Below, in pieces: positions 35,805-39,332 of a stretch of 64,000 nt of DNA. This DNA comes from Meloidogyne chitwoodi (Eukaryota > Nematoda > Chromadorea > Rhabditida > Meloidogynidae), in NCBI GenBank assembly GCA_015183035.1, contig JACZZP010000001.1, positions 2,852,001 through 2,916,000 of the forward strand, read 5' to 3'. Each line of letters begins with the position of its first letter. Position 1 is the stretch's first letter. A program made the position numbers and the translations under genes. Below the pieces are notes generated by a model. That model did not search any database. It was not told the origin of the DNA and saw nothing but the letters and a program-made list of their open reading frames with translations.

Positions 35805-38800
35805 TTAATAAATGGGGACGTCAATCGCATGACGAATTAAATGTTTAAAATTATTGCTTGAATGAATTTTAATCAAATAATTATTATCCTTAATTATTCT
35901 TTCACATAATTTCCTAGAACCTTCGCCGATTATGATGGCTTTTCCGCCAATCTCATTTAATTTTTTCAGTTTTATTTCATAATCGGATACGACGTCATAA
36001 TGCCCTTTTTGGCTGAGTTCGCCAATGGCGACCGTTGCTATATTATTAAAAAACGTTAAATATTTTTATATTAATTTTTAAATTAACTAAATCCTAATTA
36101 TTTAACTAGTAATTTTTTAATAAATTAATGATACAAAACAAAGAAAAAATAAAAGAATGGTATATTTTTTAACCAATTCTCTTTAACTATTTTAAATTGT
36201 TACCGGGCTTTGGAGCAATGCCAGTAGCACATGATATGAATGAAATGGCAATTGAGCCAGTTCCAGAAACCCCTTCGACTGGAAAAGCCTTAAAACTGAA
36301 GTATATTAGGGGTACTTACCACGGTCCACCCGAATATAAATCACGTCGAAGTTAAAAACAAGATCTACAAGACTACCAATAATTCACAACGTTATACAAA
36401 ACGAAAAACAATTTCTATACGAGACAACACCATTTGAAAAAATTATATCCCAAAAATTTAGATTTTTGACAAATTGTATAAATTTTGTCCCTAGTGGTAC
36501 TACAAACAATTTTTTTTACAAATAATTTAAACAAAAACTTTTACACAAATAACAACGTATTTTTTCTCGCTCTCGCAACACCAAATTTTATTACCTTTTG
36601 TATTATTAAAAAATAAAAAAACAAGTATTTCTAATTAAATTTATTAAAAAAAAAATGCACCTTATCTTCTATGCCGGAAATTGCAAATTTTAAACAATTT
36701 CCAGCAAAGGAGATAAAGTATTAAAAAAATTTATTAATAAAACTCGAAATCACGCTAAAATAAAAAATTATTAAGTCCAACATCGCGCAAACGAAGTAAA
36801 AGTTAAATTAAAAAAATTATTTTAAATTTTATTTTAAGTTTTCCCGATTTTTGTGTATAAAAAACCCAGGAACCAGAAAACTTGGAATTTCAGATTTTAT
36901 TTCGGTTTTCAAAAATACTGGAGAGAAAAAAAATTTACCCATTTCATTTTAATTACTTACGGGGAAGATATGAAGTACAAATTTTTTGCCTTTGAATTCA
37001 TTAGGTAGAATTTTTTTGCAGTATGTTAAGACATTCCAGCAGTGGCCAATGTAAGCGTCGTTACAATCAGCAGTGACGCGGAGTTCAGGCCCCTCCGTTG
37101 TCACCTCCTCAACTTGGCACATACTGACGATTCCAACTTAAATGTTTGAAATTTATTTATAAAAATATAATAAAAATAACCATCTCCAGGAGCCACTGCC
37201 ATGATTGGGAATTCTCCTACCCCTGGCACCATAAAATCAAGAATTGACTCTACTAAATTACAAACATTGTTATTCATATATTATTTAAAAAAACCTGTCG
37301 AACTCGCACACGAGGCCCATTTTCCAATGTGCGAGGTACTTCTTCGGCACTTAACGCACCGTTTTGCTTGTCTCAAAATGTTTTTTGTAAGAGGCATAAC
37401 ATCACCAGTAGGTTCATCTCTTGCACGTCTATCCGTAAGATTGTAATCAACAGAAAGTACAAGGTTCGAATTTTGACGATCATTAGAATCATCCGTTAAT
37501 TGTTTTTTCTAAAAACAAAGTAAATAATCTTTTTTAATTTAAAAACCTCAATTCCTTCAAAGTCTTCGTCACTAGTGGTGCTTAATGTGCCATCAGAGTC
37601 TGTTTCAACTACATCTTCATCGTCGCTTTTGTCTTCTTTAAATTCAGTGACCATTCTATCATATTCTTCGTCTGACTCAAAATGAACAGGAACGCCAGTA
37701 GTTTCATCAATATCATCCATCTTTTAAAAAAGGAAATTAAAAAGAATCAAAACCCCCCAATTCCCCAAAATTAAAAAAAATATTTACAATGTCACGTTTT
37801 TCATCTTCATCATCAGGATTAAAATCAGTAATCTTCTTAGCCAAATCAGTCAATAGAGCAAAACGTCTCTTTGTTAATTTGGATGAAAATGGAGAAATTT
37901 CCTTCTTTTTATCTTTTTCCCGAATTGAAGCTGATTTTAATATTAGAAGAATTTCGTGTGAAGATACAAGTAAAATTTCTCTAGGTTCATCGCCAATAAG
38001 TTGTTGAATTAAAGAAAGGAAGACTTCAAAAGTATTTCGGGTTACTTGTGTTCTAGGTTTGTAAATTCCAGCAATTCCAATTTCATCTACTGCCGATTTT
38101 TGTTCACGGATATCTTCACTATCACGAGATTTTCTTTAAATGGAATAATTAAAATAAGAAAAGTTTGGCTACTAGTCGGATTCGAACATCGACCTCTATT
38201 TACTAATACTTTTTCATGCGCTTTACTAGCTGCCTGGAAAAACTTTATTTTTCTATTTTCTAGTTTATATGTAAACCCAACAAAACGTTTTAACCCCAAA
38301 TCCCCTAAAAGTAGATAAGAATAATAAAATTGAATACCCTTTAGAAGACTTCTTTTCAGATGGTAAAGCGATTTGTTGAACATTATTGTCCATTTTTGAT
38401 TCATCCAAAATATCTTTTGTAAGAGGCATAATCTCATCAGTAGGTTCATCTCTTGCACGTCTATCCGTTAGATTGTAATCAACAGAAAGTACAAGGTTAG
38501 AATTTTGACGATATTCATACTGTTGAGAACGAGCGATTTGGTCTGTCATTTTTAATTTCTTTTCATCCTAGAAAAGTTAAAGTCGTTTTATGCAGTTTTT
38601 TAATTAAAAATTACCGAAACTATATCTTGTACTTTAACTTCAACAAGTTTATTCTCAGAGTCAGGTTTGCTAGGCAAATTTTTTGATTCCTTTTTTTCAC
38701 TTTGTTGGTGACCAGGGCAAAAAAAAATCAGATTTCTGTTTTGGCAAAGTTTTTTTAATAAAAGCAGCATGTTCAATTCCAAGAAGCAAAACCAAAGCAG

Positions 38801-39332
38801 TTTCACAAGAGCGATCATCGGCAGAATTCTAAAGAATTTATTTTTAAATAAATTTTCCTTCAAAAAAACCTTCAAAATATTCAATACTTCTTGCGTTTTT
38901 TGTTGAGATTCTGTTGGATCAAAATATTTGGATAAGTAACGCTTCACCCAATGAGCGTCGATATCCCGTCGATTTTTGTTCTAAAAAATAAAGAAAATCA
39001 ACGTAATTTAGGACAAAGTTCTGTCTATCGTCCTCGATATTTCAACAATGTTTTTATCAAAATTAATTGGAAAAATGCTCAACACAAGAACTTTCGTTTA
39101 ATATCGCAAGAAAGTCTGTGATTTTACATAAAAGAATAGAACAATAGTTTAGCCAATTTCTACTAAATTAAAACTAACCGAATATTAAAAAATATATAGT
39201 CGATAGACTAATTTCGAAATTTATTGAAAATAAAATAAATAAAATATAACAAACCTTGAAATAAATAATAGCACATATGCTTGCAAAAAAGAATATAATT
39301 AAGACAATAATTAATATAATAAAATTATCCAT
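35805..39332 (-). CDS. chimeric gene: permuted SNRP-200 N-terminus + Lon protease domain
   Basis: Proposed minus-strand gene. A first exon (39332 to about 39255) encodes MDNFIILIIVLIIFFFASIC, a membrane anchor. It splices in phase to SNRP-200-like exons in altered order: exon 4-5 copy (RRDIDAHWVKRYLSKYF), then exons 1, 2 and 3, then an exon 1 fragment (about 37370-37482) that continues without a break into non-SNRP-200 sequence (CVKCRRSTSH). Later exons (about 37186-37262, 36963-37138, 36195-36283, 35805-36042) form a Lon-type S16 peptidase domain with GPELRVTADC, VEGVSGTGSIAIS, ATGIAPKPATVAIGEL and YEIKLKKLNEIGGKAIIIG. Counting from TGI, the Ser in GVSG and the Lys in YEIK are 43 apart, as in the Lon Ser-Lys dyad. 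One junction (36963 to 36390) is out of phase in my reading, so a microexon is missed or the gene is broken. The Lon exons are richer in G+C than their neighbours. Confidence 0.55.
38165..38240 (-). tRNA. decayed tRNA-like sequence in permuted copy
   Basis: It lies at the place matching the SNRP-200 intron 1 tRNA-like sequence. The B box is TGTTCGAATCC, and the A box (CTAGTAAAGC) is eroded. Treated as a pseudogene. Confidence 0.3.

What the first reader, a model, noticed from the sequence alone, without database searches (positions are those of the whole stretch)
35805..39332. Membrane-anchored Lon-type protease domain fused to permuted SNRP-200 exons
Exons on the minus strand read, with one unresolved junction, as a single-pass membrane anchor, then reordered Brr2/SNRP-200 N-terminal exons, then an S16 (Lon) peptidase domain. 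Seen directly: GVSGTGS and YEIKLKK with 43 residues between the Ser and the Lys, and GEL at the place of the Lon GEI block. From knowledge of Lon: that spacing equals the catalytic Ser-Lys dyad distance in E. coli Lon (S679/K722). No AAA+ module is present. The SNRP-200 pieces keep open frames and matching splice phases, which is unexpected for debris. I infer a nematode membrane-anchored Lon-like protease gene invaded by SNRP-200 DNA, possibly still expressed.
Basis: partly seen in the sequence, partly recalled or inferred. Interest (0 to 1): 0.88.

Follow-up and report, generated by a model that had tools for sequence, protein, structure and literature searches.

The report
Membrane-anchored Lon-like gene with SNRP-200 insert
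A nematode gene that appears to encode a membrane-anchored piece of the mitochondrial protease Lon, without its ATP motor, is split by a duplicated fragment of a neighbouring splicing gene; it belongs to a small family that most likely arose from a Lon gene like the animal's own.

Summary
The main observation holds. On the minus strand, 39332-35805, there is a membrane-anchor exon, then about 1.6 kb of duplicated SNRP-200 DNA, then four exons of an S16 (Lon) peptidase domain with the Ser-Lys pair 43 positions apart. Pfam Lon_C stays below its cut-off on this copy; the link comes through paralogues: a profile of three of them scores 33.5 bits (best of 2000 shuffles 8.1), and those three pass Lon_C. 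I found 11 further loci, two with open anchored models without AAA+ and, on contig C23, an uninterrupted closest relative with a homologous anchor exon but its own late frame break. In seven divergent copies four columns are invariant; two are the catalytic Ser and Lys. Two introns of the nematode's LONP1 recur in the family in place and phase, so descent from LONP1 is likely, against a 2012 report of bacterial or fungal origin for root-knot-nematode lon proteases. The SNRP-200 blocks read as a decayed tandem duplicate; one of their exons is frameshifted, and without it anchor to Lon is one open frame of 572 codons. Expression is untested; loss of function is about as likely as use. Seven of 11 paralogue loci carry long inverted repeats (0 of 20 arbitrary loci).

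The parts
39255..39332 (-). anchor exon: ATG, one hydrophobic segment, ends phase 0 at AAG|GT
   Evidence: homologous to the C23 anchor exon by DNA alignment score 61 vs maximum 52 of 1000 shuffles
38596..39001 (-). SNRP-200 block B, copy of window 29677-30111 (78% DNA identity); exon 38980-38870 open, exon 38828-38615 frameshifted
37496..38553 (-). SNRP-200 block A, copy of window 30079-31170 (84% DNA identity, introns included); exons 38567-38338 (begins 14 nt upstream of the block), 38133-37788, 37720-37547
37340..37480 (-). SNRP-200 block C, second partial copy of exon 1 (89% to 30989-31129; 93% to block A over 107 nt)
37295..37508 (-). fusion exon: start of SNRP-200 exon 4, block C, then non-SNRP sequence; phase 0 in, 1 out, the phases of the last linker exon of the C23 gene
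37181..37252 (-). S16 exon N1 (ESILDFMVPGVGEFPIMAVAPGD)
36961..37136 (-). S16 exon N2 (GIVSMCQVEE...KKFVLHIFP)
   Evidence: 39% to C23, E 8.9e-10
36204..36288 (-). S16 exon with the nucleophile Ser (AFPVEGVSGTGSIAISFISCATGIAPKP)
35805..36037 (-). S16 exon with the catalytic Lys (TVAIGELSQKG...YEIKLKK...), terminal stop
22144..31170 (-). SNRP-200 (Brr2) gene, apparently complete, source of the blocks
   Evidence: tblastn with recalled human Brr2: segments from residue 1 to 2136 in order with small gaps
33876..35502 (+). inverted copy of the C-terminal part of SNRP-200, with an in-frame stop

Best explanation
The locus is a divergent member of a nematode family that consists of one N-terminal membrane anchor, a linker and the S16 proteolytic domain of mitochondrial Lon, without N-domain or AAA+ module. 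The family most likely arose by duplication of the 3' exons of LONP1 and gain of new 5' exons. At this locus a decayed tandem duplicate of the 5' end of the nearby SNRP-200 gene sits where the linker exons of the uninterrupted relative are. Most likely working of intact members (inferred): the anchor holds the domain on a membrane with the basic flank, and so the protease, on the cytosolic side; S16 domains assemble; and the Ser-Lys pair cleaves unfolded or membrane-tethered polypeptides without ATP, as LonC does and as YlbL may. Shown here: gene anatomy, homology, dyad conservation, shared intron positions, source of the insert. Inferred: origin of the family, topology, oligomerisation, activity. 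I give about 45% that this copy still yields a protein with the dyad.
For: Paralogue profile 33.5 bits vs 8.1 best of 2000 shuffles. C9a (284 aa) and C9b (275 aa) models have an N-terminal hydrophobic segment, basic flank and Lon_C at 88.8 and 69.7 bits. C23 gene: anchor and linker exons in matching phases, Ser and Lys exons; significant anchor DNA alignment. Only 4 invariant columns among 73 filled in all of 7 chosen copies, two being the dyad; chance 0.002. LONP1 introns at alignment columns 28 (phase 1) and 119 (phase 0): the phase-0 site matches in 5 of 5 family members compared, the phase-1 site in 3 of 5, the other two (window, C6) displaced by 3 and 10 columns in a gappy stretch. Tree: the family and two mitochondrial Lons split from 26 bacterial Lons with 98/97 support. 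Family profile: best match a mitochondrial Lon (2x36, human by recall), E 6.1e-28; first bacterial Lon 1rr9 (E. coli by recall), 1.5e-19. Window vs L018 remnant of the last exon, 30 codons: dN 0.055, dS 0.434. SNRP-200 source mapped.
Against: Window copy is under the Lon_C cut-off. The residues before the Lys are degenerate: VSDYEIK here, VGGLKYK in C9a. One SNRP-200 exon is frameshifted. C23 itself has a frame break near its C-terminus. Several family loci look truncated or hold stops. Purified YlbL without its membrane segment showed no activity on three substrates (PMC6051672 passages), so the analogy is not proof of activity. No fungal and only two animal Lon rows were in the tree, the bacterial rows were picked by likeness to LONP1, the two mitochondrial Lons did not group together, and the tool warned of long branches.
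Confidence: 0.8

Rival explanations
1. Dead gene: the SNRP-200 insertion disabled this copy and what remains is a young pseudogene in a birth-and-death family. (Compatible with the origin proposed above; it competes only with function.)
For: Frameshifted SNRP-200 exon; Lon_C below cut-off; truncated or broken relatives; the inverted C-terminal SNRP-200 copy beside it has a stop.
Against: S16 exons and anchor are open with GT-AG sites and compatible phases; low dN/dS in the last exon against the L018 remnant, on 30 codons only; dyad kept.
Confidence: 0.5
2. Expressed chimera: SNRP-200 exons serve as the new linker between anchor and protease.
For: Anchor + B exon 1 + A exons 1-3 + fusion exon + four S16 exons give one open frame of 572 codons if B exon 2 is left out; 279 SNRP-derived codons stop-free, chance 0.18 to 0.009 for 30 to 90 substitutions on the copy.
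Against: B exon 2 must be skipped: with it the frame stops after 106 residues. Pooled differences from the source (54.3 of 653.7 nonsynonymous, 34.7 of 171.3 synonymous sites, pooled by hand; per-exon dN/dS 0.90, 0.41, 0.21 and 0.15) are compatible with a mostly unconstrained copy of a constrained gene; the frame match at the two exon fusions could be luck.
Confidence: 0.2
3. The Lon domains came by lateral transfer from bacteria or fungi, as published for lon proteases of M. incognita and M. hapla.
For: PMC3511272 section 6, whose authors favour intron gain after transfer from intronless bacterial genes (passage of section 15); anchored AAA-less Lon proteins exist in bacteria (YlbL).
Against: Two introns shared in place and phase with the nematode's own LONP1; tree and profile scores side with mitochondrial Lon. 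A fungal or other eukaryotic donor is not excluded by these data, and I could not check that the published genes are the same family.
Confidence: 0.07
4. Chance resemblance of AT-rich DNA to a Lon domain.
For: Pfam alone is not significant; the N-half alone does not beat shuffles.
Against: Shuffle controls for the whole domain and the anchor; exon-level matches to other loci.
Confidence: 0.01

Closest known systems
Mitochondrial Lon (LONP1), MEROPS S16 / Pfam PF05362
   Same: S16 domain by profile, Ser-Lys pair 43 apart, two intron positions and phases shared with the nematode's own LONP1
   Different: no N-domain, no AAA+ module; membrane anchor and linker instead; one extra intron between the Ser and Lys exons
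LonC of Meiothermus taiwanensis (PMC3391209, abstract and outline seen)
   Same: S16 domain without ATPase activity; degrades unfolded substrates without ATP
   Different: bacterial; large N-terminal region with a possible non-functional AAA-like domain; no membrane anchor mentioned in the abstract. The C9a and C9b models have no such region
YlbL of Bacillus subtilis (PMC6051672, passages seen)
   Same: one membrane segment plus Lon peptidase domain; dyad S234/K279
   Different: has a PDZ domain; dyad 45 apart; bacterial
lon proteases (S16) of M. incognita and M. hapla listed as lateral transfers (PMC3511272, section 6 and passages seen)
   Same: abundant S16 genes in root-knot nematodes; possibly the same family
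   Different: bacterial or fungal origin proposed; anchor, shared introns and inverted repeats not described in the parts I saw

Membership tests
MEROPS S16 / Pfam Lon_C | Pfam Lon_C above gathering score | tested here: not met
   window copy 15.3 bits vs 21.1; paralogues C9a 88.8, C9b 69.7, C6 63.8 bits pass. The window copy is therefore filed as a member of the nematode paralogue family, not as a Pfam-certified S16 peptidase.
MEROPS S16 / Pfam Lon_C | Ser-Lys catalytic pair at the Lon spacing | tested here: met
   43 positions; both columns invariant in the 7 copies aligned; the E. coli spacing is recalled
MEROPS S16 / Pfam Lon_C | peptidase activity | not testable with these tools
   no assay
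LonA/LONP1 type | AAA+ module in the same chain | tested here: not met
   no AAA+ family in Pfam scans of the C9a and C9b models or of the window pieces scanned
Nematode anchored Lon-like family (defined here) | N-terminal hydrophobic anchor followed by basic residues | tested here: inconclusive
   anchor seen in the window, C23, C9a and C9b; basic flank clear in C9a, C9b and C23; in the window only the last Lys of the anchor exon is certain, since the next exon is not known. 5' end of C6 and of the other loci not modelled
Nematode anchored Lon-like family (defined here) | intron phases 1, 0, 1 in the S16 domain | tested here: met
   window, C23, C9a, C9b, C6
SNRP-200 / Brr2 | N-terminal Brr2 exons homologous to the intact neighbour | tested here: met
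   78-89% DNA identity including introns; BRR2_plug 19.6 bits, under its cut-off of 25

The most novel reading that the evidence does not exclude
A spliceosomal helicase's N-terminal exons were captured as the new linker of a membrane-tethered, ATP-independent Lon protease, in a LONP1-derived nematode family that multiplies through palindromic gene duplications and was mistaken for a lateral acquisition.
Probability: 0.15. Interest if true: 0.75.

Novelty: new variant of a known kind. Interest (0 to 1): 0.55.

Why it matters
Most Lon proteases work through an AAA+ motor in the same chain. A family in which an animal freed the protease domain from the motor and tied it to a membrane would be a natural test of what that domain does alone. 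The shared introns question a published lateral-transfer assignment, if the genes are the same, and the inverted repeats offer a case of recurrent inverted duplication in one gene family.

Tried and rejected
Pfam scans of single window exons found nothing at E <= 1. A PDB search with an early, wrongly joined Ser-Lys piece gave two hits, chain 8erw_A (C2HR4_8r, E 0.0028) and an antibody chain (E 0.33), which I take as chance. A protein-database search with C9a found no relative at E <= 1 among 2530 candidates; candidates are limited to similar lengths, so full-length Lons could not appear. The same with a seven-row profile found one of 2688 candidates, a 217-residue protein on a 1.8-kb contig that resembles LONP1 (37%) more than C9a (29%); I take it for a partial Lon. 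Rfam reached no gathering score in 33-40 kb. Secretion signals were not sought. Inverted repeats of 60 nt or more were looked for in window 30-45 kb and not found. Literature searches for Lon in root-knot nematodes listed PMC3511272, which I opened; others listed that hold the words, such as PMC3296651 and PMC9799720, were not opened, and supplements could not be read, so absence from print is not shown.

Full report
What is there. Read on the minus strand, 39332-39255 is an ATG exon with one strongly hydrophobic segment and a GT donor; 37252-37181, 37136-36961, 36288-36204 and 36037-35805 are four exons of an S16 (Lon) domain with GT-AG borders and compatible phases. Between them lie three blocks of SNRP-200 DNA. 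Of the acceptors I considered for the Ser exon, only the AAG at 36289 keeps the frame from the preceding exon; it gives 85 nt against 88 nt in C9a, C9b, C6 and C23.

Is it Lon? But Lon_C finds paralogues in the same genome, and a profile built from three of them without the window scores the spliced window domain at 33.5 bits, E 3.8e-9, while the best of 2000 shuffles reaches 8.1; the Ser-Lys part alone scores 20.6, the N-half alone 5.9, no better than shuffles. Searches with Lon_C, with the Lys exon, the N-half, C9a and the C23 Ser-Lys part give 11 loci besides the window and LONP1: C1:2233k (L019), C1:2645k (L045), C1:2930k (L018), C6:88k (L022), C9:505k (L046), C9:789k (L023, C9a), C9:985k (L020), C9:1477k (L024, C9b), C15:12k (L021), C23:917k (L043), C25:2167k (L044). 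L045 and L046 rest on weak matches (E about 0.002). The tool warns that counts are lower bounds. C9a and C9b give open models of 284 and 275 residues with an N-terminal hydrophobic segment, a basic flank and no AAA+ match in Pfam; both also match ChlI above its cut-off.

The uninterrupted relative. The C23 gene has an anchor exon (MDFFLLAIIFLLVIIFIYALIVMIRYYYK), four linker exons, two N-half exons, a Ser exon and a Lys exon, in matching phases. Its anchor region aligns with that of the window at score 61; the best of 1000 dinucleotide shuffles is 52. It has its own frame break near the C-terminus, so it is not a clean working copy. In the window, SNRP-200 DNA sits where C23 has linker exons, and the fusion exon 37508-37295 has the phases of the last C23 linker exon (0 in, 1 out). 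A protein search with the C23 anchor and linkers found no second locus at E <= 0.01, the window included.

Catalytic residues. I aligned 7 of the 12 loci (window, C9a, C9b, C6, C23, L018, L019; the other five were left out). They are 15 to 40% identical to the first, and only four columns are invariant: two Gly, the nucleophile Ser and the general-base Lys. With 73 columns filled in all rows, both dyad positions falling among four by chance is 0.002. Ser and Lys are 43 apart in the window. The residues before the Lys are degenerate in the window (VSDYEIK; VGGLKYK in C9a). Against the remnant of a close paralogue in L018, the 30 codons compared in the last exon show 4 nonsynonymous changes in 74.8 sites and 5 synonymous in 15.2: constraint, on a small sample.

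Origin. The nematode's own LONP1 (C6:844k) has two introns in the S16 stretch I read: phase 1 before GSTLYIEA, and phase 0 with the Ser as the ninth residue after it. In an alignment with five family members the phase-0 intron falls in the same column in 5 of 5. The phase-1 intron falls in the same column in 3 of 5 (C9a, C9b, C23); the window and C6 are off by 3 and 10 columns in a gappy stretch. The third family intron is absent from LONP1. A family profile that includes the window matches a mitochondrial Lon best (2x36, E 6.1e-28), and the 19 best rows are mitochondrial, before the first bacterial one (1rr9, 1.5e-19). In a tree of 31 rows the family and two mitochondrial Lons stand apart from 26 bacterial Lons (98/97). 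The two mitochondrial Lons do not group with each other, and the tool warned of long branches. Descent from LONP1 is therefore well supported against bacteria and open against other eukaryotes. PMC3511272 (section 6 read) reports lon proteases as the most abundant laterally acquired peptidases in M. incognita and M. hapla; whether these are the same genes I could not check.

The SNRP-200 blocks. The source gene runs from 31170 to 22144. Block B (39001-38596) copies 30111-29677 at 78%, block A (38553-37496) copies 31170-30079 at 84%, block C (37480 to about 37340) copies part of exon 1 at 89%. Introns are included in A and B, so these are DNA duplications. The order B, A, C is what a decayed tandem duplicate of 31170-29677 would leave; no shuffling need be invoked (inference). 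B exon 2 carries a 1-nt shift. With it the joined frame stops after 106 residues; without it anchor to stop is open for 572 codons. Simulated neutral decay of 279 source codons (B exon 2 and block C not included) leaves no stop in 18% (30 substitutions on the copy), 8.6% (45), 4.1% (60), 2.2% (75) or 0.9% (90) of runs. Pooled by hand, nonsynonymous differences are 54.3 of 653.7 sites and synonymous 34.7 of 171.3. This is weak evidence of use at most. A C-terminal SNRP-200 copy lies inverted at 33876-35502 and has an in-frame stop.

Inverted repeats. Seven of the 11 paralogue loci (L018, L019, L020, L021, L044, L045, L046; 5 to 7 kb each searched) hold long inverted repeats: arms of 487 to 1217 nt in five, several adjoining arms summing to 650 nt or more in L018 and L044; the arms counted are 85 to 100% complementary, with spacers of 11 to 415 nt between the inner arms. 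The matched Lon exons lie wholly in the arms at five of the seven, nearly so at L044 (162 of 177 nt of one match) and partly at L045 (94 of 150 nt). Of 20 six-kb loci at round-number coordinates on five contigs, 0 have arms of 300 nt or more; the longest is 164 nt. The window has one elsewhere (46335-47373, 492-nt arms). Loci with two arms are slightly easier to find, and other recently expanded families were not used as a control. PMC7953838 (passages) counts 1 and 3 palindromes in M. incognita and M. arenaria by a gene-order method and warns of assembly artefacts.

How it works, most likely. Basic residues directly after the anchor (clear in C23, C9a, C9b; in the window only one Lys is certain) suggest that the S16 domain faces the cytosol (positive-inside rule, recalled). 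LonC degrades unfolded proteins without ATP (PMC3391209, abstract). YlbL is an anchored Lon-domain protein whose putative catalytic residues are needed in the cell, though the purified protein without its membrane segment showed no activity (PMC6051672, passages). By analogy, intact members would be ATP-independent, membrane-tethered peptidases for unfolded or tethered substrates. For the window copy I hold loss of function and continued use about equally likely.

Species. The assembly (47.48 Mb, 30 contigs) is unnamed; contig lengths of 2.2-3.0 Mb for five of the six contigs seen are compatible with the M. chitwoodi reference (N50 2.3 Mb). This is inference.

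Noticed in passing
L018, L019, L020, L021, L044, L045, L046: Lon-like gene pieces lie in or across long inverted repeats at 7 of 11 paralogue loci; if transcribed they could form hairpin RNA against the family.
   Followed up: partly
window 46335-47373: Palindrome with 492-nt arms, 99% complementary, 55-nt spacer; translated in six frames but not identified.
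   Followed up: partly
window 33876-35502 (+): Inverted C-terminal copy of SNRP-200 (winged-helix and Sec63 pieces by Pfam) with an in-frame stop.
   Followed up: partly
window about 40056-42476 (+): Exons that read like a MYST-type histone acetyltransferase, from reading only.
   Followed up: no
window about 30750-30860 and 35180-35260 (-): Stretches that look tRNA-like to the eye, in SNRP-200 intron 1 and near the C-terminal copy; ARAGORN finds only one tRNA in the window, at 11756-11838.
   Followed up: no
L043 2264-2548: Two 123-nt linker exons of the C23 gene resemble each other and are acidic; no Pfam search was made. C6 (L022) seems to have repeated acidic exons upstream too, from reading only.
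   Followed up: no
L019 about 3640-4400: Beside the L019 palindrome there is another piece that reads like the N-half of the Lon-like domain.
   Followed up: no
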